Shown one piece after another: positions 4,622 through 39,659 of a stretch of DNA of 48,635 nucleotides. The stretch lies in assembly GCA_027315225.1 (NCBI GenBank), contig DAHUYJ010000005.1:1-48635 (forward strand), in the 5' to 3' direction. The first letter of the stretch is position 1. Each line of letters begins with the position of its first letter. The stretch comes from Candidatus Saccharimonadota bacterium. Its GTDB lineage: Bacteria > Patescibacteriota > Saccharimonadia > Saccharimonadales > UBA4665. The notes below the pieces were generated by a model. It was not told the DNA's origin, ran no database searches, and worked only from the letters and a program-made list of their open reading frames with translations. The translations under genes and the position numbers were made by a program.

Positions 4622-4746
4622 AGGCTCCTTTCTTTCATCCCGACTATACGGTCGGCCCTGGAGTTTCACCAGATCATGCCACATTCTTGCGGCTCGTGGG
4701 CTATAACCACCGATTAGGACTTTCACCAAACCCCGAAAGGAATACC
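4622..4746 (-). ncRNA. FMN riboswitch (RFN element)
   Basis: The minus-strand leader carries the hallmark RFN blocks in order: CCTTTCGGGG, GGTGAAAGTCC, a CGGTGGTTATAGCCC block, GATCTGGTGAAACTCC, GGCCGACCGTATAGTC, and GGATGAAAGAAAGGAG closing the basal stem with CCTTTC. It binds FMN and, in the known class, represses the downstream riboflavin genes when FMN is plentiful. The predicted transcription start is directly at the 5' side of the aptamer, so the aptamer begins the mRNA. Confidence 0.93.
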
Positions 4747-6322: not shown

Positions 6323-7398
6323 CGGCTTTGCGCCCCAGCATCGAGCCCAAATCCGATAGGCTTGGGCTTGAGCGTCAGGGGGCTAGTTGGCAGTTCGGCG
6401 CTGTCATCGGCTGAGTTGTAGGCTGCCGGGGCGATGTCGTTCGGGGCGTCCGGATGAAAAAGGGCCGAGAGGTACTGCACCTGGCCGCGGCCCGGCCCGA
6501 CCTCCGTTTGGCCGCCGCTATACATTTTGATCTTGCGTTCCTGGCAATAATCGTACGCGGCAAACAGCTCGCTAATCGCGCCAAACCGCGACGGTTTGAT
6601 GTTGACTGCCTTTGGCATGAAAGGCTGGGCGCCGATACTCACCACATCATGAATCGGAAAGTCCCAAGTCACCCGATTGGCGTGCGACGCCAGAATGGGA
6701 CGGGTTTCATCAGTAATGTCCGGGTCTTCCAGCAAAGCCTCAGGGAACTTGGTGACGATACTTTGGTACAACACCGGGTCAGTAGCCACATCAACCGGCG
6801 TACCCTTATAAAAGCCTTTGAAGTCCATAACATCGACAGCATCAGTTTGCGCCAACCGGTCAATCAACTCGTCGCTCCAATCACTGAACGGATCAAGCTT
6901 GAACCGCATGGCCGGATATTTTTCCAGCCGCTGACGGATCGGTTCAAAAGATGACGGTTTGCCGAGGCGAAGAGAAGCCACAAACCGTAAAGGTTTGAGA
7001 TTGCGCCCTAGGACTTCAGCTAGGTTGGTAGTGTTCTGCTGCAAAGCCAAATCAAGGGCCGCGCTTTCAATCGCCCAACGCCTGTAGTTGGGAAAAGTAT
7101 CGTGGAATAAACCCTCCGGCGCGTCCGGGAACCAATCGAGCGTACCTAAAGATTTTGAAAACTCATCAAACGTATACGTACCCATTAGCGGCAAGACCGG
7201 TCCGCGCTTTAATAAAGATGTTAGAAGCTCCGGGAAGTAGGTTACGTCTTCGCCAACACCGGCGCAGCCCAAACCATGGAGTTCAAAGAGCACAGTTTTA
7301 CGGTCGCCCACTTCACCGCCGACCCGCAGGCTCAACGGCTTTAGCGAATATGAATCAACCGTGAGTGGCAGCTTGCGTATACGGTCATACGTACCCAT
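6319..7398 (-). CDS. Enolase-superfamily enzyme (MLE/MR-like)
   Basis: A 359-residue protein of the enolase superfamily, enzymes that abstract a proton alpha to a carboxylate using Mg2+. It shows the N-terminal capping domain with G-V-G-E50, then the barrel: R165-F-K167 at the end of strand 2, the three metal ligands D192 (VDVMDFKG), E224 (LLEDPD) and D246 (TWDFPIH), and K268 (NIKPSRFG), the second catalytic base position. C-terminal SGGQTEVGPGRGQ takes the place of the usual strand-8 motif. Both lysines are present, as in the muconate lactonising/dipeptide epimerase/OSBS branch; substrate cannot be named. Start is set by TATACT 6 nt upstream. Confidence 0.85.
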   Translation of the reverse strand: MGTYDRIRKLPLTVDSYSLKPLSLRVGGEVGDRKTVLFELHGLGCAGVGEDVTYFPELLTSLLKRGPVLPLMGTYTFDEFSKSLGTLDWFPDAPEGLFHDTFPNYRRWAIESAALDLALQQNTTNLAEVLGRNLKPLRFVASLRLGKPSSFEPIRQRLEKYPAMRFKLDPFSDWSDELIDRLAQTDAVDVMDFKGFYKGTPVDVATDPVLYQSIVTKFPEALLEDPDITDETRPILASHANRVTWDFPIHDVVSIGAQPFMPKAVNIKPSRFGAISELFAAYDYCQERKIKMYSGGQTEVGPGRGQVQYLSALFHPDAPNDIAPAAYNSADDSAELPTSPLTLKPKPIGFGLDAGAQSR

Positions 7399-7404
7399 TC
7401 GTAT

Positions 7405-7410
7405 AGTATA
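7405..7410 (-). promoter_or_regulatory. Leaderless -10 element of the enolase-superfamily gene
   Basis: Minus strand TATACT, then ATACGA and the ATG at 7398. No Shine-Dalgarno precedes the ATG. A matching -35 is not obvious. Confidence 0.6.
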
Positions 7411-7435
7411 AACCCTAGGCAGGATGGCGCCGTGT

Positions 7436-7481
7436 TATAATATGAGCCTATCAAGTGCCCTGAATAGGGCGCTGGTAAAAC
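7436..7481 (+). promoter_or_regulatory. Two -10 candidates and a hairpin before the ricin-CHAP gene
   Basis: TATAAT at 7436-7441 would start RNA near 7448. An 8-bp stem follows at 7454-7461 / 7466-7473 (AGTGCCCT-GAAT-AGGGCGCT, one G-U pair). TAAAAC at 7476-7481 lies 7 nt before the ATG and could give a leaderless transcript instead. The hairpin would lie in the leader only for the upstream start. Confidence 0.45.
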
Positions 7482-7488
7482 AAAAATC

Positions 7489-8559
7489 ATGCAACCAACC
7501 CAAGGCTCTAGGTTACGTTCCAGGCGTGTTGTGACAAAACGCGACCGGCATAACCACACCATTGCATATAATCACACTGGGGCAGCGACAAGCCAATCCG
7601 GACTTGTACGCTATGTAATGATCGTGGCACTGGTGACGATATGTGCCGTACTGTTCTGGAGCGTCAAGAGCCACGCGTTCGCGGATACCGTAGAAATAAA
7701 ATCAGGAATAAGCGGTTACTGTCTGGACGTACACAGCAATGGCGCAACAGCCGGCACAGTTGCGGACAGCTGGCGATGCAACGATACTGATGCCCAGGAC
7801 TGGAGAGTAATAGGGGTTAGCATCGAGCATGGCAATAATTTATGCCTGAGCGTTGCCAATAACGCAATCGCGGGCGGCAGCTCGGTCGTGTTAGGCCCGT
7901 GTGACGAGGCCGCGGGACAAGTTTGGCTTCGTGACAAAAGTGGTTACCAAAACCCTAATAGCGGCCTATGCCTCGCTGTACCGTCGGCGCAAACCGACAA
8001 GCAGCTGGTGCTTGCTGACTGTGCAAGGCTTTCCGATCCTGGAGAGACATGGGCACCCAAAACACAGGCTGGAACCCAGGAAAGCCCGGTTTGCAGCGGC
8101 ACAGAGCCACAGAAAGTCACCTGCTACGCCGAGCAAGACTGGAGCCAGTGGCAAACCGGCTCGCCCTCCCACGAGACCTTACTTACTTACTACACCGATG
8201 GAGCCCCTTACGAAGAATGGTGCGCCGACTTCGTGAGCTATGTGTATAAACAGGCTGGCCATCCCTTCACGCACGGGGAAACTAACCGTTGGGACGAAAA
8301 CGTGGCCGGGCGCATCCAGTACATGGGGTTTACCAAGCATGATGCAGCCGGATACACGCCCCGTCCAGGCGACATCGCGTACTTTGACTACCCTGGAGGA
8401 CATGTAGAAATCGTGGTGAGCGGCGGCCATAAGCCCACGTTTATTTATGGCAATTCAGCAAAAGTCGATCCTGCCACCGGCAACGGCGAAATGGAGGCAA
8501 ACACTATCACGAACACTGCGTACGGCCGCGTAATATATTACTTGTCCCCCGACCGTTAG
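7489..8559 (+). CDS. Secreted ricin-lectin / CHAP peptidoglycan hydrolase
   Basis: A 356-residue exported enzyme. Residues 1-37 are cytosolic and basic, 39-57 form a single membrane or signal segment, and about 66-190 are a ricin-type beta-trefoil with Q-D-W (103-105), Q-V-W (144-146) and paired Cys, expected to bind carbohydrate. From about 202 follows a CHAP amidase/endopeptidase domain with nucleophile C245 (EEWCADFVS), H305 (GGHVEIV) and N322 (YGNS). Other family members cleave peptidoglycan cross-links or stems, so this is a cell-wall remodelling or competitor-lysing enzyme held at the outer face of the membrane. The lectin-first order is uncommon but not unique. No partner gene is adjacent. 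Confidence 0.9.
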   Translation: MQPTQGSRLRSRRVVTKRDRHNHTIAYNHTGAATSQSGLVRYVMIVALVTICAVLFWSVKSHAFADTVEIKSGISGYCLDVHSNGATAGTVADSWRCNDTDAQDWRVIGVSIEHGNNLCLSVANNAIAGGSSVVLGPCDEAAGQVWLRDKSGYQNPNSGLCLAVPSAQTDKQLVLADCARLSDPGETWAPKTQAGTQESPVCSGTEPQKVTCYAEQDWSQWQTGSPSHETLLTYYTDGAPYEEWCADFVSYVYKQAGHPFTHGETNRWDENVAGRIQYMGFTKHDAAGYTPRPGDIAYFDYPGGHVEIVVSGGHKPTFIYGNSAKVDPATGNGEMEANTITNTAYGRVIYYLSPDR

Positions 8560-19298: not shown

Positions 19299-21116
19299 AT
19301 GGAACTCGCTGAAACCCATAACATACACGCGATGAACATTCTATCTGTAGTAATAGCCGCGCTGAACAGCCCCGGCCATTATGTGCATTGGTCAATCTTT
19401 ACGATCTCGCTCGCTAATATAATCATCGTTGCCGTCATGGTGGTCATATTCGGTCTGGCGGTGTTGTTGCCATTTCCAAAAGGCCGCCGTGACGAAGAAT
19501 TGGAGCGGCCCGGGTATGACGATTCTGGGGAGCATATACGGCCGCACTCCGGGCACCGCGCCAATGACAAGATGTGGACGGCGCGCCTGCGGAACTTCGC
19601 CCTCAGGATCCTGCCCCCCGGAAAACTAATGCCGGACAGACAGCCGGCCTATGTCGCCTCATGGATTTATGTCTTCGGCGTGGCCACGCTGGCGGCACTC
19701 GGCATGGTCGTTGTTTCCGGCATAGTGCTTGCTATCGGCGGCGTGGACTGGTGGCATCAAAGCGCATTCGGACATTTTGTGAACAGCATACATTTGTGGG
19801 GCGTGGAGCTCTTCATGGCGTTCATGGTTATCCACTTGTGGGGAAAGTTCTGGATGGCAGCCTGGCGCGGAAAGCGCGCCTTGACGTGGATGACAGGCGT
19901 GCTGTCGTTCGCCGTCTCCATTCTGGCTTGCTTTACAGGGTATCTCTCACAGCAGAACTTCGATTCGCAATGGATCGCTACCAATGGCAAAGACGCTATT
20001 AATACGACCGGGTTAGGCTCTTTCTTTAATCTCATGAACTTTGGCCAAATGCTGACCTGGCATATAGTCATCATACCGCTCATCCTGCTGGCGATGGTCG
20101 TGATCCATGTACTTTTGGTACGCATCCGCGGCGTGTCACATCCGATGACCAAACGCGGCCGCAGCCGTGCCGAGCGCCGTGCTATCAAGGCTGCTGAGGC
20201 GGCGGACTGGAAAGGACCGACCAGGCGCTACGATATCCTAAAAGAAGCTGCGATTGCCACAGCAATCGTGCTTGTCCTGGTGCTGGCCCTGGCCGGAACG
20301 CTGTCATCACCGGACGAACCGCCTGTTACCGTAGCGACATGGTCCAAAATAGCTCCCGCCGATTTCATGGCGACAACTGCCAGTGAATTGGCAGGCACCA
20401 GTGAGACCGCTATGTATGGCCCTCCGTACAATAACGGCTCCTCGAGCGTCCAAAGCCTTGGCGGCATCTCCTGGCAGAAACTGACCGGCGTACATCAGCA
20501 TATCAACGCGGCCAAGACATTCGTACTGTCGCCGCTCTCCAAAATCGCGCCCGCCAACCCCCAACTGGCAAAGGCTCTCAAGCAATACGAAAGCGCCCCG
20601 GGCGTCCAACAGAAGTCCTGGGACAATGCCTATTTAAAAGCTGTTGACGGCGTAACTTTCAAAGCAAATGTTCCGGCTGTGCCGAAAACCAAGGACGGCC
20701 CCGTCCCGACCATGGTCGCCAGCGAGCTTACTATGGCGCAAAGCGGCGCGATTGACACGGACCTGCTGGCTCAGCAACCGTTTTATGGCACGAACTATAC
20801 CAAACCTCTCCTGTTCTTGGAGGACGGCAATTATTTTGCGTCAAAAGCCCAAGCCCAACACCTTACCGGTGAACAGTGGGGCGTCATGAACGAGACGGGC
20901 TCCTACCCGGGGCAGCCCTGGTTATGGCTGTATACGCTCTGGTACCAGATACCCAGCTTAAGCGCGTCGGCCAATATCGACCTGATCGCTATTTATCTGA
21001 CCGGCTTGGCGACCGTGCTGCTATTATTGGTCCCGTTTTTGCCAGGTATACGCGATGTACCGAGACTCATACCCATACACCGATTAATCTGGCGGCGATG
21101 GAGTCGCAACGGATAA
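19299..21116 (+). CDS. Cytochrome b (bc1/b6f type) with large C-terminal domain
   Basis: A 605-residue membrane protein. An extra N-terminal helix at 33-58 is followed by a soluble segment, then a four-helix cytochrome b core at about 120-275. The four heme ligands are visible: H165 and H179 (13 residues between) in helix B and H255 and H270 (14 between) in helix D, the latter spacing being that of b6 and some actinobacterial proteins. Two b hemes are therefore expected. After a helix near 312-332 comes a roughly 235-residue extracytoplasmic domain of unknown type and one last helix at about 570-590. No Rieske protein, cytochrome c or subunit IV is adjacent, so the partner is not apparent. 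Normal bc complexes carry quinol oxidation at the Qo site. Confidence 0.86.
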   Translation: MELAETHNIHAMNILSVVIAALNSPGHYVHWSIFTISLANIIIVAVMVVIFGLAVLLPFPKGRRDEELERPGYDDSGEHIRPHSGHRANDKMWTARLRNFALRILPPGKLMPDRQPAYVASWIYVFGVATLAALGMVVVSGIVLAIGGVDWWHQSAFGHFVNSIHLWGVELFMAFMVIHLWGKFWMAAWRGKRALTWMTGVLSFAVSILACFTGYLSQQNFDSQWIATNGKDAINTTGLGSFFNLMNFGQMLTWHIVIIPLILLAMVVIHVLLVRIRGVSHPMTKRGRSRAERRAIKAAEAADWKGPTRRYDILKEAAIATAIVLVLVLALAGTLSSPDEPPVTVATWSKIAPADFMATTASELAGTSETAMYGPPYNNGSSSVQSLGGISWQKLTGVHQHINAAKTFVLSPLSKIAPANPQLAKALKQYESAPGVQQKSWDNAYLKAVDGVTFKANVPAVPKTKDGPVPTMVASELTMAQSGAIDTDLLAQQPFYGTNYTKPLLFLEDGNYFASKAQAQHLTGEQWGVMNETGSYPGQPWLWLYTLWYQIPSLSASANIDLIAIYLTGLATVLLLLVPFLPGIRDVPRLIPIHRLIWRRWSRNG

Positions 21117-29390: not shown

Positions 29391-30038
29391 TTACTGGCTA
29401 TTACTAAGTTCTTCTTCGATGCTGGACAGATTCCGTACGACAATGCTCTTGTGCGTAATGCTCACCAGGCCCTTGCTTTTGAGCTTGTGCAATTCCCGGC
29501 TGATGGTCTCGCGCGATAAGCCGGCCCGGGCAGCCAATTCGGTCTCCGAAAGTTCAAGTGCATACCCTGACGGCCCTTTCTTGCCAAAGCGGCGGCAAGC
29601 CACAATGAGCTCGAAGATAGTTCTGGTCCGGGCGGATCCGCCCATCAGCAACGCCATGCGTCGCAACAGCCCGTCTGTCCCCATGTAGACGCGGCTCAGC
29701 AGGTCGTACAGGACGTCATGGTTGGCCTTCAGGAAATCAATCGTGTCAGAGGCGGGCGCCTGTCTCAAAGACACGTCCGTTATTGCCTCGAAGAAGTACT
29801 CGTTCGGTGTCCCATTAATGGCCCAATTCATAGGGAAAAAAGCCGGCGGCTTGAAGACGTTCACAACAATCTCGTCGCCATGTTTTGTGATATCGTATTG
29901 ACTGACGTCTCCCTCAATAAGGTGAAATATCCCGGTTGGAGGATCACCTTGATAAATCAGGATCTGCCCTCTTTTGAAGTGTCTCAAAGGGTACTGTGCA
30001 AAAAAGTTTTCTATCTCCCGTGCAACACCGACCTTCAT
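29391..30038 (-). CDS. Crp/Fnr-family regulator A
   Basis: A 215-residue regulator: cyclic-nucleotide-binding-like beta roll (residues 12-115), long dimerisation helix (about 118-145) and winged helix-turn-helix. The recognition helix L-S-R-E-T-I-S-R-E-L-H-K-L carries Arg-Glu-x-x-x-Arg as in CRP and Glu-x-x-Ser-Arg as in FNR. The cAMP phosphate-binding GE-loop is replaced by AFFPMNWAI, and there are no clustered Cys for an Fe-S cluster, so the signal is unknown. It is a paralogue of regulator B at 33517. Divergent promoter region with a CRP-like dyad at 30098-30113. Confidence 0.9.
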   Translation of the reverse strand: MKVGVAREIENFFAQYPLRHFKRGQILIYQGDPPTGIFHLIEGDVSQYDITKHGDEIVVNVFKPPAFFPMNWAINGTPNEYFFEAITDVSLRQAPASDTIDFLKANHDVLYDLLSRVYMGTDGLLRRMALLMGGSARTRTIFELIVACRRFGKKGPSGYALELSETELAARAGLSRETISRELHKLKSKGLVSITHKSIVVRNLSSIEEELSNSQ

Positions 30039-33516: not shown

Positions 33517-34197
33517 ATGGGAGCTGCACCGCCACAATCAGGGCTTAGGCAACTATTCAATCGCGGACGTGAGCTTGCGTACCAAAAAGACGATATCATA
33601 ATCCGGCCCGGCGATACCCCGTCGGGAGTGTATTACATAGTCTCTGGCTGGGTGAAAGTCTATACTTTGTGCCGCGATGGTGAACCGAATATCATCATGT
33701 CCCTCGGCGCCGGAGAGGCTTTCCCTATGGCCTGGGCAGTAAGCGGCATCCAAAGGGACATTGGTTTCGCCGCCTTGGACAGCACTAAGGTCCGTCGCAT
33801 TTCACAGCAGGATTTCACGCAAGCACTTAAGTTTGACTCATCTATAACGAACGACGTACTGCGAGTCCTGGCTGGCTATTTCTTCGCGCTTGCAAGCGAA
33901 GTTGACAATTTGCAATACCGCAGCGCCCGTGAAAAGGTCGTTTTTCGACTGGTCTTTTTAGCCAATAACTTCGGTAGAAAGGATGGTTCCAGGATAATCA
34001 TCGCCACTCGTGTCACAAATGATTACATCGCTCGCTCAACCAATATGACTCGCGAAACGGCAAGCCGGGAATTAAGCCGTCTAAGCCGCAAACAGCTTAT
34101 CAGGAGCATGAGCGGCCAGATTATAATTCCGGACCTGGGACGGCTATGTAACGAGATCAGTCGCCACTTCAACCCCTCAACGCTTAGCCTGGACTGA
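33517..34197 (+). CDS. Crp/Fnr-family regulator B
   Basis: A 226-residue regulator with an N-terminal beta roll (PGDTPSGVYYIVSGWVKVY, then ITMSLGAGEAFPMAWAV), a dimerisation helix and a winged helix-turn-helix with recognition segment M-T-R-E-T-A-S-R-E-L. It shares FPM-x-W-A with regulator A in place of the cAMP-binding loop, so the two are paralogues sensing an unknown signal, likely neither cAMP nor an Fe-S state (no Cys set). CAGGAG lies 5 nt before the ATG. It sits upstream of the two-component genes with a 93-111 bp gap. Confidence 0.9.
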   Translation: MGAAPPQSGLRQLFNRGRELAYQKDDIIIRPGDTPSGVYYIVSGWVKVYTLCRDGEPNIIMSLGAGEAFPMAWAVSGIQRDIGFAALDSTKVRRISQQDFTQALKFDSSITNDVLRVLAGYFFALASEVDNLQYRSAREKVVFRLVFLANNFGRKDGSRIIIATRVTNDYIARSTNMTRETASRELSRLSRKQLIRSMSGQIIIPDLGRLCNEISRHFNPSTLSLD

Positions 34198-34308
34198 TTA
34201 TCACGGATCCGGGTATGAGTACGTTTGCCCCGTAACAAAAACTGTGTATAACTTTTAATATGGATTTAATAATTGGTCTGTTAAATACAGGTGAAGCGTA
34301 CGAGCCAT

Positions 34309-35025
34309 ATGAAGTTATTACTCATTGATGACAACACCTCCCTCACCAAGAGCATAGCAGGCTTCTTAGAGAGTACGTGGGATGTTACCGCTGCTTATAG
34401 CGGCGAAGACGGGATAAAGCTTGCCCGGAGCGGCAATTACGACGTCATTGTGCTGGATTTAAACTTGCCCGACGTAAGCGGCAATTCCGTATGTCGAAGT
34501 TTGCGCAGGTTCGGAGTGACAGCGCCTATATTGGTATTGAGCGGCATAACAGAGTTGAACTCTAAAATCAGCCTGCTGCAGTCCGGGGCCGACGACTATG
34601 TAACCAAGCCTTTTGATATCAGCGAACTACAAGCTCGCCTATTGGCTTTGTTGCGCCGGGGACGCCTGGATGACCCAAAGGCGCCGTACCTGCTCAAAGC
34701 CGACAACTTGGTGCTCGACCCGCTCAAGAGGCGCGTCGAGCGAAGCGGCCGCACCATTACATTACGCCGTAAAGAGTTCGACATCTTGGAATACCTACTA
34801 CGTAACCAAGGGCGAGTCGTGACTCGCGGGATGATTATGGATAACGTCTGGGACGCTGATAGCGATTCGTGGAATAACACCGTCGACGTGCACATAAAGT
34901 CATTACGGGACAAGGTTGACCGTCCCTTTAAACGGCAACTCATAACCACTGCTTACGGGTTGGGCTATACGATTAATGAACGGTATGGCCGGCGAGTAAA
35001 ATCAAGGGAAAGGAGGAGCTCATGA
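34309..35025 (+). CDS. OmpR-family response regulator
   Basis: A 238-residue regulator: receiver with phospho-acceptor D50 (VIVLDLNLPD), D7-D8 acidic pair and K100 (YVTKPFD); a C-terminal winged helix of the Trans_reg_C type ends the protein (EFDILEYLLRNQGRVVTR ... TTAYGLGYTI). I chose ATG 34309, which opens with the conserved receiver strand, over GTG 34291, which lies 4 nt after TTAAAT and could be a leaderless start. Its stop overlaps the 39-codon ORF (ATGA), and the sensor kinase follows. Probable target is its own operon including the terpene genes, from context only. Confidence 0.93.
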   Translation: MKLLLIDDNTSLTKSIAGFLESTWDVTAAYSGEDGIKLARSGNYDVIVLDLNLPDVSGNSVCRSLRRFGVTAPILVLSGITELNSKISLLQSGADDYVTKPFDISELQARLLALLRRGRLDDPKAPYLLKADNLVLDPLKRRVERSGRTITLRRKEFDILEYLLRNQGRVVTRGMIMDNVWDADSDSWNNTVDVHIKSLRDKVDRPFKRQLITTAYGLGYTINERYGRRVKSRERRSS

Positions 35026-35141
35026 AAACCGTCATTACTAGTATACTGACTGATCCCAGTGTGCGCGACGACACCGCTGTTGAAGCCGCGTTGCTGAAGC
35101 AAACCGTGGCTATTCCATGGGATAGTGCGCCAACCAACTGA
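35022..35141 (+). CDS. 39-residue peptide between response regulator and kinase
   Basis: ATG 35022 overlaps the response-regulator stop (ATGA) and has a perfect AAAGGAGGAG ribosome site ending 3 nt upstream, the strongest in the region. The product (first residues MKTVITSILTDPSV, last DSAPTN) is a soluble helix-like peptide with one Trp and no membrane or signal segment. The kinase starts 82 bp after its stop. I do not know the family. The ribosome site and exact coupling support translation. Confidence 0.6.
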   Translation: MKTVITSILTDPSVRDDTAVEAALLKQTVAIPWDSAPTN

Positions 35142-35222
35142 ATTCTTGCACCGCCTAAAGACGCTTTGGACGTCAAGCATTGCTTGGTATGCTGTGTTTA
35201 AGTATATTTCGTGAGGGACCTG

Positions 35223-36605
35223 GTGAATACTCGTAGTATATATCAAGCTTTGATCGCGCCCCGGTCTGCAGATCCAAATACCCAGAATCAGGAGATAGTC
35301 CTTAATTGGTTATTAGTAGCGTCACTAGGTTTGACGCTGGCCGCATTTGTTAGCACGGTCGCTGACTACATAAGTTTGCAAGCCGATTATCTCCTGGACA
35401 GATTGTTTATTTTGTGCGGGGTGTTTGTATTTTTTGGCCTATTGCTACTTTTATCAAGGCAACGGCAGCAGCGAATAGTCCCATCGTTAATTTTAGTAGC
35501 TATCTTCTTTATCGCCGCGTCTTTGATAATCTTTCGCTGGGATATTAGCAACCCTTTCGGTGTTTTATTATTCAGTGTTGCAATAGTAATAGCAGGAATT
35601 TTGCTGAGTGCCCGCTTCTCGTTATATACAGCCCTCTTGACTATTCTCGCGCTCAGCGTCTACATGTGGGGTAAAACCCACGGCATTTGGTCGCCCAACC
35701 TGTCATGGATACGTCAGCCAAGCCGTGCAGCCGACGTGGCAAGTTTCAGTGCCATTTATGCAGTGCTGGCCTTAACTACCTGGCTATTCAATCGGCAAAT
35801 GGAAACGGCGCTAAGCAGGGCAAACCGCTCCGAAAGGGCCCTTAAGCGCCAGAAAGATCTGCTCGAGATAAAAGTCGAACAGCGAACGCGGGAGTTACAG
35901 GCCGCGCAACTGGAACAGGTCCAACAGTTCTACCGGCTTGCCGAACTTGGACGTCTGAGCACGGCGCTCTTTCACGACTTAGCTAATCATGTCATGAGTG
36001 TCAGCATTGATATAGAAGGGCTGCAGAAACGGCAACAATCCGATATGCTGGCCCGGATAAAGGAGAACATTCACCACATCGACGGCGTTGTAAGGCGGGT
36101 CCGCCGGCAAATAGGCGGCAAAAACGAGATAGAGCGCTTCAATGTCATTGAAGAGATACGTGAAGTCATATCTATGTTAACTTACTTTGGTGACCGAAGG
36201 CGGGTTTCTATAGAACTACGAGAACTACCATCGCGTAAGCCTATACCGTTTCGCGGAGACCTGACGCGTTTTCGGCAGTTGGTCATTAACCTGCTTTCTA
36301 ATGCAATTGAAGCATACCCCGCGGTCAGGAGCGGGCGAAAACAGCGGCCTGTGATTATAAGCGTCTCGCGGCCTCCAGGCACGTTAATTATCGAGGTGGC
36401 GGATTGCGGGGAGGGTATTCGCCCGGCCATGAAGGCTAAGGTTTTCGAGCCGTTTTACAGTACAAAAGACACGGGCACCGGCATTGGCTTGTTTATTGTC
36501 AAGAAAATCGTTGAGGAAGATCTGGGCGGTACTATTAGCGTAACCAGTGATAAGCGAACAGGGACAACATTTACCGTAACATTGCCTCTTAAACATCATG
36601 GATAA
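35223..36605 (+). CDS. Membrane histidine kinase
   Basis: A sensor kinase of about 460 residues: six membrane helices (residues about 25-190) without a large sensor loop, a coiled coil (200-235), an H-box with phospho-acceptor H251 (ALFHDLANH), and a HATPase with N box (NLLSNAIEAY), DCGEGI, and GTGIGLFIVKK. Most helices lie next to each other, so it probably senses a membrane or internal signal. Start GTG 35223 has GAGGG 5 nt upstream; GTG 35211 is the other candidate. Its final codons overlap the terpene-synthase start by 8 bp, so the kinase and terpene gene are one translation unit. Confidence 0.92.
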   Translation: MNTRSIYQALIAPRSADPNTQNQEIVLNWLLVASLGLTLAAFVSTVADYISLQADYLLDRLFILCGVFVFFGLLLLLSRQRQQRIVPSLILVAIFFIAASLIIFRWDISNPFGVLLFSVAIVIAGILLSARFSLYTALLTILALSVYMWGKTHGIWSPNLSWIRQPSRAADVASFSAIYAVLALTTWLFNRQMETALSRANRSERALKRQKDLLEIKVEQRTRELQAAQLEQVQQFYRLAELGRLSTALFHDLANHVMSVSIDIEGLQKRQQSDMLARIKENIHHIDGVVRRVRRQIGGKNEIERFNVIEEIREVISMLTYFGDRRRVSIELRELPSRKPIPFRGDLTRFRQLVINLLSNAIEAYPAVRSGRKQRPVIISVSRPPGTLIIEVADCGEGIRPAMKAKVFEPFYSTKDTGTGIGLFIVKKIVEEDLGGTISVTSDKRTGTTFTVTLPLKHHG

Positions 36606-38583
36606 ACGCAGCGGCCTGCCCTCGAAAGATATTGAGGTTGCTCTCAATAAGGGCATATCCTATTTGGCAAGCGTCCAACACGCCGACGGAGGCTTTGACA
36701 GCTTCTCCAGCCCCTCAAGGGTCCGGTTCAAAAAAGCCTACGCGTATAGGACAACGTTTGTGCCGTCTTTGATTCTGGCTGCGTTAAGCGGTCTGGAGGC
36801 GTCGGCCGGGCGCAGTATGCGTCAAAAACTATTCAAGTTCGTACGCGCCCAAAGAAGCCCAAGTTGGTCATTCAACTATTGGGCGTTGCGGTCCTGGGAG
36901 CGCAAACAACTGCCATACCCGGATGACTTGGATGATACTTGCTGCGCACTCATAGGATTAGCGCTTCATAATAAGGTATCGATAGGCCCGGCCACTCTGG
37001 CCGCTATGGTCAAGCTACTGGTCGCCACGGAGACGCAACCGGGTGGACCTTACCGTACCTGGCTAGTGCCACCTGATGGCCCTGCACAGTGGCAGGATAT
37101 CGACCTGGCTGTTAATGCCAACGTCGCCTATCTATTGTCATTGGTGAGTGAGCCCCTGCCAAACATAACAAGCTTTTTAGAAAAAGCTATCCGTAACCGC
37201 CGGTTGGTTTCACCATATTACGCCTCGGAGTATCCGTTGCTTTACTATGTGTCCCGCGGCTACCAGGGTTCACGGTCCGAAGACTTACGGACGATCGCCA
37301 AACGATTACGTAATCAAAACAAGGCTCTTGGCCCTTTGGAGAATGCCACTTTGCTCACTTCATTGTTGCGATTGAACGATCCGGATGTAGAGCTTTTGGC
37401 ATCACGCTTATTAGACACCCAACGCCAGGACGGCTCCTGGACGGCTGGAGCTTTTTGCCTGGATCCAGCCCGCAGCGGGAAGAAATACTACCATGGCAGC
37501 GAAAGCCTAACTACCGCCCTAGCACTGGAGGCGCTTAATCTTTATCGGGAAAGGGCTGGCCGTTCGGCGATAGAACGCCAGCCACAAGACTACGTGCCCG
37601 CCTTTGGTACGCAGGCAGGGCAAGTATTGGGTGCCGTAGGGGAAAAAAGCAGTCATCTTGGCCCAGAACTGCGCGGCGCCCTACGCAATTACATGCAGCG
37701 TACCGTGCATTCCCCCAATGGCACGGAAATAATATCCTTGGCACAGCGCTTTAACTGCTCGCTAACGCATCCTCTTGGCCATAACCACCCGGCCTTGATG
37801 CGGCTTGGCTTGGCAAACGCTTACGGCTGGGCAGCATACACCATTTTTGACGATTTTATGGACGAAGAGGGACGAACACGGTTGCTGCCGGTAGCAGTAG
37901 CGGCGTTGCGATACTCGCTTTCAACCTTTGAAGGGGTACTCCCTGAAGACGCTAGTTTCCATACATATATCCACCAAGTATTTGATGCCATCGATGCCGC
38001 CAATGCGTGGGAACTGGCCCATTGCCGCTTCCTGGTCAGCGATAGGGCCATCACAATTAAGAAACTGCCTGGATACAGCGACGCGTCACGGTTGGCCGAG
38101 CGTTCCCTAGGGCATGCACTTGGGCCTTTGTCCTTGCTCCACCTGAACGGAGCGGGATTTGATGGGAACCTGATGCGCAGCGTGCGTCAGGCCTTCATAC
38201 ATTACCTGGCGGCCCGCCAACTGAATGATGACCTCCATGACTGGCAGACAGACCTAGCCAAAGGCCACATTACGCTTGTAGTAGCCCGTATACTGGAAGA
38301 CCTGCAGCTCAAACCCGGCCTCCATGATCTGGAAGCCATAATGCCGGTTGCGGGGCGTCAGTTTTGGAACCACAGCATAATTGCACTTTGCCGTACCGTT
38401 CAGGAGCAAACTGTACTTAGCCGACAAAACCTCGGCAACTTGCCACAATTAAAGCGCCCCAACTTCATCACTGAGCTGCTGGACCGTATAGACACCTCGT
38501 TGCAGGAGACTCTCACTAGCCAGGACCAGGCCCGGCGTTTCTTGAGGCACTACAGCCGCAAAGTCCCGAAAGGAACGAGGTGA
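36598..38583 (+). CDS. Fused class II terpene-cyclase-like / class I isoprenoid-synthase protein
   Basis: A 661-residue two-part protein. Residues 1-320 form an alpha-barrel prenyltransferase/squalene-cyclase-repeat domain with glycine-rich turns (HADGGFDSF, RQDGSWTAGAF) and D110-L-D-D113-T, the DxDD acid motif of class II terpene cyclases. Residues about 345-655 form an isoprenoid-synthase-like helical domain with D418-D-F-M-D422 (DDxxD) and N543-D-D-L-H-D548, the two metal-binding motifs. Together this resembles bifunctional class II/class I diterpene synthases, but is not a close match to a group I can name. The start overlaps the kinase by 8 bp; the stop overlaps the prenyl-diphosphate synthase by GTGA. 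Product unknown. Confidence 0.87.
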   Translation: MDKRSGLPSKDIEVALNKGISYLASVQHADGGFDSFSSPSRVRFKKAYAYRTTFVPSLILAALSGLEASAGRSMRQKLFKFVRAQRSPSWSFNYWALRSWERKQLPYPDDLDDTCCALIGLALHNKVSIGPATLAAMVKLLVATETQPGGPYRTWLVPPDGPAQWQDIDLAVNANVAYLLSLVSEPLPNITSFLEKAIRNRRLVSPYYASEYPLLYYVSRGYQGSRSEDLRTIAKRLRNQNKALGPLENATLLTSLLRLNDPDVELLASRLLDTQRQDGSWTAGAFCLDPARSGKKYYHGSESLTTALALEALNLYRERAGRSAIERQPQDYVPAFGTQAGQVLGAVGEKSSHLGPELRGALRNYMQRTVHSPNGTEIISLAQRFNCSLTHPLGHNHPALMRLGLANAYGWAAYTIFDDFMDEEGRTRLLPVAVAALRYSLSTFEGVLPEDASFHTYIHQVFDAIDAANAWELAHCRFLVSDRAITIKKLPGYSDASRLAERSLGHALGPLSLLHLNGAGFDGNLMRSVRQAFIHYLAARQLNDDLHDWQTDLAKGHITLVVARILEDLQLKPGLHDLEAIMPVAGRQFWNHSIIALCRTVQEQTVLSRQNLGNLPQLKRPNFITELLDRIDTSLQETLTSQDQARRFLRHYSRKVPKGTR

Positions 38584-39659
38584 TATCTCAAGCTGGGGCA
38601 GTTCTCCGGTACCGACCCGACGTGTCAGGCCGCATGGAGACATTCCTAGCCAGCCAGCTTAAGTCGGCTAGCGGCGGTCCGGCATGGAAGGCTGATGTCA
38701 TTAGGCGTTTGAACCGGTTTGTTCGCGGCGGTAAATTGTTGCGAAGCAGCTTGGTATGTTACAGCTACAGGCTTTTTGAGCAGGAGCAGTCCGATTCGCT
38801 ACCGGGGGCCATTCTAGACGTCGCCATAGCAACGGAATTATTGCACGCCGCACTATTGATTCATGATGACATCATCGATGACGATGACGTACGCCGTGGC
38901 CAGCCGGCTATCCACAGGCAATACAGCGACCTTATGCAGAAACGTCCAGCAGCGGCTGACCACTTCGGAACAAGCATGGCTCTCTGTGCCGGAGATATGG
39001 TGCTGTCTATGTCCTTCGGGCTGCTTGCCGGGGCTGACAGCATAAGGCCGGGCACAGTTGGAAAACTCAACAACCTGTTTGCTGACACATTAGTCACTAC
39101 CGCGGCCGGCCAAATGCAGGATATCAACCTAGGTGCATTGGCGAACCGCCCGGACAAACGTCAGATCTACGAGGTTATGAGAGCAAAAACCGCTATGTAT
39201 TCAGTAGCATTGCCGCTAATAGCTGGAGCAATCACAGCCGGGCAGCCCTCCGCTTTGTACCGCCAGTTGCAAGGCCTGGGGCTGATAATCGGAACCATAT
39301 TCCAGATCCGGGACGACGAATTAGGAGTGTACGCCAAGACCGAAACAACAGGTAAGCCTGTCGGCTCTGATATCCGGGAGGGAAAGAAAACATTGCTACA
39401 CTACTACGTATGGCGGGCCGCCAGCCCGCAGGAGCAGGAACGGTTGAGTAACGCCTTCGGCAACCCGGATGCCAGCGCTTCAGACATCGCTGCAGTTCGA
39501 AAAATAATGACGCGGCATCAGGTGAGAAAGCACTTGCAACTAGATGTCGACACGCTTGAACGCCGTGCCCGTCAGCACATAGACCGCATCGCTATGGATC
39601 GGGCGGCCAAACAAGAGCTATGCAGACTGGTTGCCTACTGCAGCCGCAGAAAAGCATAA
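38580..39659 (+). CDS. Polyprenyl (probably geranylgeranyl) diphosphate synthase
   Basis: A 359-residue trans-prenyltransferase. First Asp-rich motif D96-D-I-I-D100 (LLIHDDIIDDDD), GGKLLR basic motif near 51, second motif near D245-D246 (QIRDDELG, third Asp replaced by Gly as in many relatives), and GSDIREGKKT. The residue five before the first motif is Ala and four before is Leu; FPP synthases usually have an aromatic there, so C20 or longer is likely. GTG start overlaps the terpene-synthase stop (GTGA), with AAAGGA upstream. It would feed the adjacent cyclase. Confidence 0.93.
   Translation: MISQAGAVLRYRPDVSGRMETFLASQLKSASGGPAWKADVIRRLNRFVRGGKLLRSSLVCYSYRLFEQEQSDSLPGAILDVAIATELLHAALLIHDDIIDDDDVRRGQPAIHRQYSDLMQKRPAAADHFGTSMALCAGDMVLSMSFGLLAGADSIRPGTVGKLNNLFADTLVTTAAGQMQDINLGALANRPDKRQIYEVMRAKTAMYSVALPLIAGAITAGQPSALYRQLQGLGLIIGTIFQIRDDELGVYAKTETTGKPVGSDIREGKKTLLHYYVWRAASPQEQERLSNAFGNPDASASDIAAVRKIMTRHQVRKHLQLDVDTLERRARQHIDRIAMDRAAKQELCRLVAYCSRRKA

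What the first reader, a model, noticed from the sequence alone, without database searches (positions are those of the whole stretch)
36598..39659. Bifunctional class II-class I terpene synthase with its own prenyl diphosphate synthase
One 661-residue protein carries D110-L-D-D113 (class II, proton-initiated cyclisation), D418-D-F-M-D422 and N543-D-D-L-H-D (class I metal motifs), and the next gene, overlapping by GTGA, is a prenyl diphosphate synthase whose Ala and Leu before the first Asp-rich motif suggest C20 or longer product. Seen: motifs, order and overlaps. Known: class II plus class I domains together make cyclic diterpenes such as abietadiene in plants. Inference: a dedicated diterpenoid or longer-chain cyclic terpene, in a lineage where I know of no such system.
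Basis: partly seen in the sequence, partly recalled or inferred. Interest (0 to 1): 0.92.

Follow-up and report, generated by a model that had tools for sequence, protein, structure and literature searches.

The report
Terpene-tagged peptide signalling gene module
What looked like a plant-style terpene synthase in a tiny host-dependent type of bacterium is most likely an enzyme that attaches and folds up a terpene on the tryptophan of a 39-residue peptide encoded two genes away, in a peptide, sensor-kinase and regulator module found across the Patescibacteria, which suggests that these bacteria signal with lipid-tagged peptides.

Summary
In detail: one continuous 661-aa ORF carries DxDD, DDxxD and a second Asp-rich motif, and overlaps a polyprenyl synthase gene. 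AlphaFold2 and Foldseek give one class II cyclase beta-barrel plus an isoprenyl-diphosphate-synthase-fold domain, with no gamma domain.

The 'diterpene synthase' reading is probably wrong. In 393 class genomes this peptide family hits 22 of 23 genomes that have the enzyme and none convincingly of the 370 that lack it. It stays beside the enzyme where the kinase is gone, and is absent where the kinase remains but the enzyme is gone. An invariant Gln precedes the second Asp-rich motif (42/42), a hallmark of peptide-tryptophan prenyltransferases (ComQ, PalQ, ChrPC).

Best explanation: a ChrPC-like prenyltransferase-cyclase puts a cyclised terpene on Trp33 of a pheromone precursor read by the adjacent two-component system (ComQXPA-like). 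The host is a Saccharibacterium with no detected isoprenoid-precursor pathway; the module recurs across Patescibacteria. Activity and signalling are inferred, not shown.

The parts
34291..35025 (+). Response regulator, OmpR/PhoB type (receiver plus winged-helix DNA-binding domain)
   Evidence: Pfam Response_reg 4.2e-23 and Trans_reg_C 2.5e-24; orthologue in the same place in most homologous loci
35022..35141 (+). Precursor peptide, 39 aa: MKTVITSILTDPSVRDDTAVEAALLKQTVAIPWDSAPTN; ATGA overlap with the regulator's stop; Shine-Dalgarno aaaggaggag just upstream
   Evidence: leave-one-out profile E 3.8e-11; genome-wide hit E 1.2e-15; pS well above pN in relatives
35118..35120 (+). Codon of Trp33, the proposed acceptor of the terpene group
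   Evidence: Invariant Trp, preceded by Pro in 90% or more, in alignment A5
35211..36605 (+). Histidine kinase with an N-terminal membrane sensor domain (5-6 predicted TM helices), proposed receptor
   Evidence: HATPase_c 1.4e-25; alignment A2 with invariant His255; hydropathy
36598..38583 (+). Two-domain prenyltransferase-cyclase, 661 aa; start overlaps the kinase gene by 8 nt
36622..37572 (+). Class II cyclase (beta) domain, residues 9-325, single alpha6/alpha6 barrel, no gamma domain
   Evidence: AlphaFold2 pLDDT 88; Foldseek best hit drimenol synthase 9mhs E 5e-11, then monodomain cyclases 8pak/8paj/6sbb; profile hit to 9mhs E 4.6e-13
36925..36936 (+). DxDD motif (D110-L-D-D113), proposed proton donor for tail cyclisation
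37597..38556 (+). C-terminal prenyltransferase-like (alpha) domain, residues 334-653, isoprenyl diphosphate synthase fold
   Evidence: AlphaFold2 of the domain alone pLDDT 92.7, pTM 0.90; all of the top 50 Foldseek hits are isoprenyl diphosphate synthases
37849..37863 (+). First Asp-rich motif D418-D-F-M-D422 (FARM)
38218..38253 (+). Q541 plus second Asp-rich motif D544-D-L-H-D548-W-Q-T-D552 (SARM); Gln proposed to hold the indole NH of Trp
   Evidence: Q541, D544, D545, D548, W549, D552 in 42 of 42 homologues covering the site; role of this Gln in PalQ and relatives: PMC13290415, PMC10853753
38580..39659 (+). Polyprenyl diphosphate synthase, proposed maker of the prenyl donor; the only PF00348 gene in this genome
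   Evidence: PF00348 3.5e-53; one genome-wide match

Best explanation
The locus is a peptide-pheromone module. (1) The 39-aa precursor is made in front of the kinase gene. (2) The polyprenyl synthase makes a C15-C20 or longer allylic diphosphate from C5 units that this genome seems unable to make and so must obtain from outside. (3) The C-terminal domain of the 661-aa enzyme, a ComQ/PalQ/ChrPC-type peptide prenyltransferase, binds the donor at D418-x-x-x-D422 and the indole of Trp33 near Q541/D544, and transfers the prenyl group to Trp. (4) The N-terminal class II domain protonates the far end of the chain with the DxDD Asp and closes rings, leaving a polycyclic terpene on the peptide. (5) The peptide is trimmed and exported by unknown enzymes and sensed by the membrane kinase, which phosphorylates the regulator. 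Shown by sequence: genes, motifs, domain folds (predicted), conserved linkage, coding status of the peptide, peptide-enzyme co-occurrence. Inferred: steps 2-5, including chain length, site of attachment and the signalling role. In relatives that lost DxDD the tag would stay linear, as in ComX.
For: Peptide-enzyme coupling: a profile of the peptide over 393 class genomes hits 22 of the 23 genomes with the enzyme, once each; the one missed (G308) has a run of N inside the peptide; the only other hits (E 7e-4 to 4e-3) lie in long unrelated frames of enzyme-less genomes. All 39 two-domain loci with upstream DNA have it (in G002 the peptide is on the kinase's contig, L094, split from the enzyme's), including L074, L076 and L077 where the kinase is missing; none of 14 regulator-kinase loci without the enzyme has it. 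The peptide is a real gene: leave-one-out profile E 3.8e-11 for the window, pS 0.62-0.90 against pN 0.18-0.44, invariant Leu9, Arg15, Trp33. Enzyme: Q541 before the SARM in 42/42, the Gln reported as the Trp-recognition mark of trans-IDS-like peptide prenyltransferases; prenyl-synthase fold; cyclase domain like AsDMS/MstE. Precedents: ChrPC and NctPC are peptide-Trp prenyltransferase plus class II cyclase fusions; [quoted passage not shown] ComQXPA. Kinase directly upstream of the enzyme in 35 of 40 loci, 30 overlapping, also outside the class.
Against: No activity is measured. The peptide is not detected by the ComX or any other Pfam/NCBIfam model, and I had no ComQ, PalQ or ChrPC sequence to compare with the C-terminal domain. 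The order and regulator class differ from ComQXPA. No exporter or processing protease is conserved next to the module. The sensor domain also occurs in genomes without peptide or enzyme, so it may have another ligand. Co-evolution of enzyme and sensor is only modestly stronger than with the kinase domain.
Confidence: 0.72

Rival explanations
1. One reading: a bifunctional cyclase-synthase that turns GGPP or a longer prenyl diphosphate into a free cyclic terpene (protonation at DxDD, then ionisation at DDxxD); the two-component system only regulates it.
For: DxDD, DDxxD and a second metal motif with NSE-like spacing; adjacent prenyl synthase; bacterial fusions of this logic make ent-kaurene and sandaracopimaradiene (PMC11469919).
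Against: No gamma domain; C-terminal domain closest to prenyl diphosphate synthases, not class I cyclases. Does not explain the peptide in 22/23 enzyme genomes and none convincingly of 370 others, nor the Gln-before-SARM signature. No conserved tailoring genes downstream.
Confidence: 0.08
2. Terpenoid signal: the enzyme makes a free cyclic terpenoid that the membrane kinase senses, and the 39-aa product is an accessory small protein or a leader ORF acting on kinase or enzyme.
For: Kinase and enzyme genes overlap or abut in 35 of 40 loci; membrane-embedded sensor suits a hydrophobic ligand; enzyme and sensor trees broadly agree.
Against: The peptide stays with the enzyme, not the kinase, when the pair is split; its only invariant residues are Leu9, Arg15 and a C-terminal Trp, which fits a leader plus modified core rather than an attenuator.
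Confidence: 0.1
3. A terpenylated peptide that is an antimicrobial or host-directed molecule rather than a pheromone; the two-component system controls its production or immunity.
For: Same gene and motif evidence as the best explanation; many peptide-modification clusters carry two-component regulators (established knowledge).
Against: No conserved exporter or immunity gene next to it; linkage of peptide, membrane kinase and regulator with no other cargo is the layout of self-sensing systems such as ComQXPA and resembles the PalP-PalX-PalQ cluster.
Confidence: 0.1

Closest known systems
ChrPC and NctPC (peptide prenyltransferase-cyclase fusions; Hubrich et al. 2024, described in PMC13290415)
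   Same: One protein joins a peptide-Trp prenyltransferase domain (trans-IDS-like in ChrPC) to a class II cyclase domain (MstE-like in NctPC) that cyclises the chain on Trp.
   Different: Here the cyclase is N-terminal, the precursor is a family of about 35-40 aa with no library match, the genes belong to a two-component module, and the lineage is Patescibacteria. The original paper was not available, so domain order and taxonomic reach of ChrPC relatives are unchecked.
ComQXPA of Bacillus
   Same: Prenyltransferase of isoprenoid-synthase fold, small precursor with a Trp near the C-terminus, membrane kinase, response regulator (PMC5331326).
   Different: Regulator is OmpR/PhoB type; order is regulator-peptide-kinase-enzyme; precursor does not match Pfam ComX; enzyme carries a fused class II cyclase and an intact DDxxD-type SARM.
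PalQ-PalX-PalP of Paenibacillus
   Same: Kinase, precursor and trans-IDS-like Trp prenyltransferase together; enzyme earlier annotated as a terpene synthase; Gln next to SARM (PMC10853753).
   Different: PalX is a nitrile-hydratase-leader type precursor with a C-terminal Trp; no cyclase domain is described.
HAD-type drimenol synthases (AsDMS, AstC)
   Same: Best sequence and fold match to the N-terminal cyclase domain: a lone beta barrel that cyclises without a gamma domain (PMC13244436).
   Different: Their partner is a HAD phosphatase domain, not a prenyltransferase.
Bacterial gamma-beta-alpha diterpene cyclase/synthases (CseDCS, ChjDCS, StrDCS)
   Same: Class II and class I folds in one chain (PMC11469919).
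   Different: They have a gamma domain and an N-terminal part of 506-540 aa; ours has about 330 aa before the C-terminal domain and no gamma domain.

Membership tests
trans-IDS-like peptide-Trp prenyltransferase (ComQ/PalQ/ChrPC P domain) | Isoprenoid synthase (isoprenyl diphosphate synthase) fold | tested here: met
   Domain model pLDDT 92.7; all of the top 50 PDB hits are isoprenyl diphosphate synthases
trans-IDS-like peptide-Trp prenyltransferase (ComQ/PalQ/ChrPC P domain) | First Asp-rich motif (FARM) | tested here: met
   D418 in 42 and D422 in 43 of 45 homologues; the others are gaps or one Glu
trans-IDS-like peptide-Trp prenyltransferase (ComQ/PalQ/ChrPC P domain) | Conserved Gln just upstream of the second Asp-rich motif | tested here: met
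   Q541 in 42/42; feature as described in PMC13290415 and PMC10853753
trans-IDS-like peptide-Trp prenyltransferase (ComQ/PalQ/ChrPC P domain) | Small precursor peptide with a Trp encoded next to the enzyme | tested here: met
   39/39 loci; invariant Trp in A5
trans-IDS-like peptide-Trp prenyltransferase (ComQ/PalQ/ChrPC P domain) | Direct sequence homology to ComQ, PalQ or ChrPC | not tested
   No sequences of these proteins at hand
trans-IDS-like peptide-Trp prenyltransferase (ComQ/PalQ/ChrPC P domain) | Prenyl transfer to Trp | not testable with these tools
   Needs biochemistry
Class II terpene cyclase, monodomain type | DxDD acid motif | tested here: met
   D110-L-D-D113; lost in about a third of homologues
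Class II terpene cyclase, monodomain type | Single alpha6/alpha6 barrel resembling AsDMS/MstE | tested here: met
Bacterial/plant gamma-beta-alpha bifunctional diterpene synthase | gamma domain making a gamma-beta class II active site | tested here: not met
   Only one barrel before residue 330
Bacterial/plant gamma-beta-alpha bifunctional diterpene synthase | Class I NSE motif (N/D)Dxx(S/T/G)xxx(E/D) | tested here: inconclusive
   Spacing fits but the S/T/G position is Asp548 in 42/42
Chain-elongating isoprenyl diphosphate synthase (the 661-aa enzyme) | IPP-site motifs: GGKxR before FARM and RRG after it | tested here: not met
   Absent from alignments A1 and A4, read by eye
ComQXPA quorum-sensing system | ComX-family precursor | tested here: not met
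   No Pfam or NCBIfam match for five members
ComQXPA quorum-sensing system | Gene order comQ-comX-comP-comA | tested here: not met
   Order is regulator-peptide-kinase-enzyme
ComQXPA quorum-sensing system | Membrane kinase and response regulator linked to peptide and modifying enzyme | tested here: met
   regulator here is OmpR/PhoB type

The most novel reading that the evidence does not exclude
A phylum-wide pheromone system of Patescibacteria in which cells with no isoprenoid-precursor synthesis of their own use host-derived prenyl units to put a polycyclic terpene on a ribosomal peptide, so that the signal reports both kin density and host supply; it would be the first peptide quorum-sensing system recognised in the candidate phyla radiation and the first in which the pheromone carries an enzymatically cyclised terpene.
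Probability: 0.45. Interest if true: 0.93.

Novelty: new variant of a known kind. Interest (0 to 1): 0.86.

Why it matters
Patescibacteria make up a large part of bacterial diversity and live mostly as small host-dependent cells; how they coordinate or sense kin is largely unknown. A conserved peptide, modifying enzyme, membrane kinase and regulator give a concrete candidate that can be tested with synthetic genes in E. coli. The window enzyme matches no Pfam family above cut-off, and its peptide has no Pfam or NCBIfam match, so annotation pipelines that rely on these models would probably miss both. Natural members that lost DxDD offer built-in controls for what the cyclase domain adds. The apparent absence of precursor synthesis makes the source of the prenyl group a direct question about what is taken from the host.

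Tried and rejected
Frame error or fused genes: rejected, homologues of similar length in many genera. SQHop_cyclase_C in the own genome: no hit. Viral or plasmid origin: no plasmid match; two viral-collection contigs hold relatives, one with the whole module, more likely mis-sorted Patescibacteria DNA; viral fold library gave only generic prenyltransferases. Simple terpenoid-signal idea (enzyme product sensed by kinase, no peptide) was my leading view until the regulator-kinase gaps were read and is now a rival. Direct repeats for regulator binding in those gaps: nothing convincing. Mantel tests: enzyme distances follow the kinase sensor somewhat more than the kinase core (partial r 0.36, 1 of 2000 permutations), but the cyclase-domain signal disappears when only DxDD-bearing members are used, and part of that script returned NaN; not used as proof. 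A hairpin after the peptide gene is strong in several relatives (z -4 to -7) but absent in the window (z 0.15).

Full report
OBSERVATION. The reading at 36598-39659 is correct in every detail that can be checked. The 661-aa ORF is continuous, starts 8 nt inside the end of a histidine kinase gene and ends in a GTGA overlap with a polyprenyl diphosphate synthase gene (PF00348, E 3.5e-53). DxDD (110-113), DDFMD (418-422) and NDDLHDWQTD (543-552) are present. Pfam gives no significant family for the 661-aa protein; one relative hits SQHop_cyclase_C at 5e-5.

LINEAGE. The genome is 0.97 Mb, 97% complete. Its 16S gene matches four Saccharibacteria (TM7) primer/probe sequences without mismatch (probe sequences from memory), so the organism is a Saccharibacterium.

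FAMILY. 17 of 119 close relatives, 23 of 393 genomes of the class and 18 further genomes among 380 sampled from the phylum (a few weak) carry homologues. In 45 aligned members the C-terminal motifs are nearly invariant (Q541, D544, D545, D548, W549, D552: 42 of 42), while DxDD is present in about 60% and lost in a related group mainly of Saccharimonadia. The enzyme was probably ancestrally two-domain, with loss of the cyclase site at least once and probably several times.

STRUCTURE. AlphaFold2 on the 17-row alignment gave pLDDT 88. Residues 9-325 form a single alpha6/alpha6 barrel; 334-653 form a second helical domain. Foldseek matches the first to bacterial HAD-type drimenol synthase (E 5e-11) and to monodomain class II cyclases; a profile search agrees (E 4.6e-13). 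The second domain modelled alone (pLDDT 92.7) matches isoprenyl diphosphate synthases throughout the top 50. There is no gamma domain, unlike the bacterial bifunctional diterpene synthases of PMC11469919. The domain lacks the GGKxR and RRG motifs that chain-elongating synthases use for IPP (alignments, read by eye).

NEIGHBOURHOOD. In 35 of 40 loci with upstream DNA, a histidine kinase with the same membrane sensor domain lies directly upstream on the same strand, in 30 cases overlapping. An OmpR-type regulator precedes it in most. The link holds in Patescibacteria outside the class. Some Saccharimonadia keep regulator and kinase without the enzyme.

THE PEPTIDE. Reading the regulator-kinase gaps showed a small ORF in each locus with the enzyme. 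In the window it is 35022-35141, ATGA-coupled to the regulator, with a strong ribosome-binding site, MKTVITSILTDPSVRDDTAVEAALLKQTVAIPWDSAPTN. A profile finds members in loci not used to build it, including three where the kinase is gone but the peptide still precedes the enzyme (L074 E 7e-12, L076 1e-7, L077 weak because of masked bases). Leave-one-out recovers 33 of 35 (window E 3.8e-11), and synonymous differences far exceed non-synonymous ones. It is absent from all 14 regulator-kinase loci without the enzyme; L080, from a genus whose other members have the enzyme, seems by eye to keep a decayed copy. Over 393 genomes the peptide profile hits 22 of 23 enzyme-bearing genomes once each at E 2e-5 or better; three hits at E 7e-4 to 4e-3 in other genomes lie within long frames and look like chance. 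The peptide therefore follows the enzyme, not the kinase.

FUNCTION. A dedicated small peptide with an invariant C-terminal Trp, beside a prenyltransferase-fold enzyme, is the arrangement of ComQ-ComX and PalQ-PalX. A review (PMC13290415) reports that these enzymes share a Gln just upstream of the second Asp-rich motif which, with the first Asp, contacts the indole NH; that is Q541 here. It also describes ChrPC and NctPC, in which a peptide-Trp prenyltransferase is joined to a class II cyclase (MstE-like in NctPC) that cyclises the chain on Trp. [quoted passage not shown] In ComX the modified Trp lies near the C-terminus and the kinase ComP is the receptor (PMC5331326). The simplest reading of the window is thus a ChrPC-like prenyltransferase-cyclase that tags a pheromone precursor sensed by the neighbouring kinase. 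Prenylation site, chain length, cyclisation order, export and sensing are inferred.

PRECURSOR SUPPLY. Neither HMG-CoA reductase nor mevalonate kinase nor IspH passes its cut-off in any of 42 genomes tested, including this one, whereas polyprenyl synthases occur in 31; in this genome the only one is the gene next to the enzyme. C5 units or allylic diphosphates are presumably taken up, which fits a host-dependent life. Genome incompleteness is an unlikely cause, since 41 of the 42 pass the tool's quality tally (at least 90% complete). Other pathway steps were not searched.

CO-EVOLUTION. Trees of sensor domain and enzyme are broadly alike and depart from taxonomy together, and DxDD status needs two changes on the sensor tree against three on the kinase, regulator and enzyme trees. 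This fits inheritance as a unit; the excess of sensor over kinase core is modest.

LIMITS. All functional claims rest on sequence, predicted structure and gene context. The key prior paper on PC fusions was not readable here, so novelty against it is open: 'new variant of a known kind' is the cautious label. No earlier report of such a system in Saccharibacteria or Patescibacteria turned up in the full-text searches made, which cover only open-licence papers.

Noticed in passing
L080 (G040:C8), upstream of the kinase at 6580-7974: Apparent decayed copy of the precursor peptide (...VTDPPSHTVAGPIGDKSLAEQFGPWP...) where the enzyme is gone, in a genus whose other members have both.
   Followed up: partly
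L080-L093: Fourteen regulator plus kinase pairs with the same sensor domain but neither peptide nor enzyme (one of them a second copy in G177); possible orphan receptors or a different ligand.
   Followed up: partly
L022, L024, L025, L026 gap between peptide and kinase: Strong hairpins (z -4 to -7) after the peptide gene, possibly letting the peptide be made in excess; not seen in the window.
   Followed up: yes
L125:7654-8676: A stand-alone 340-aa class II cyclase-like protein with DLDD in another Patescibacteria genome, without the second domain, peptide or kinase.
   Followed up: no
L111 (IMGVR_UViG_3300025012_001675): A contig filed as viral holds the complete regulator, peptide, kinase and enzyme set (no DxDD); probably mis-sorted Patescibacteria DNA.
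   Followed up: partly
G000 and 41 relatives: No HMG-CoA reductase, mevalonate kinase or IspH over cut-off although a polyprenyl synthase is common.
   Followed up: yes
window 4623-4744 (-): FMN riboswitch (104 bits) ahead of riboflavin-like genes on the minus strand in a small-genome Saccharibacterium.
   Followed up: no
window 29391-30038 (-) and 33517-34197 (+): Two related Crp/Fnr-type regulators flank the region; a relative of them precedes the module in L022 as well.
   Followed up: no
window 19299-21116: A 605-aa multi-helix ORF that looks like a cytochrome b/b6-type protein, by eye only.
   Followed up: no
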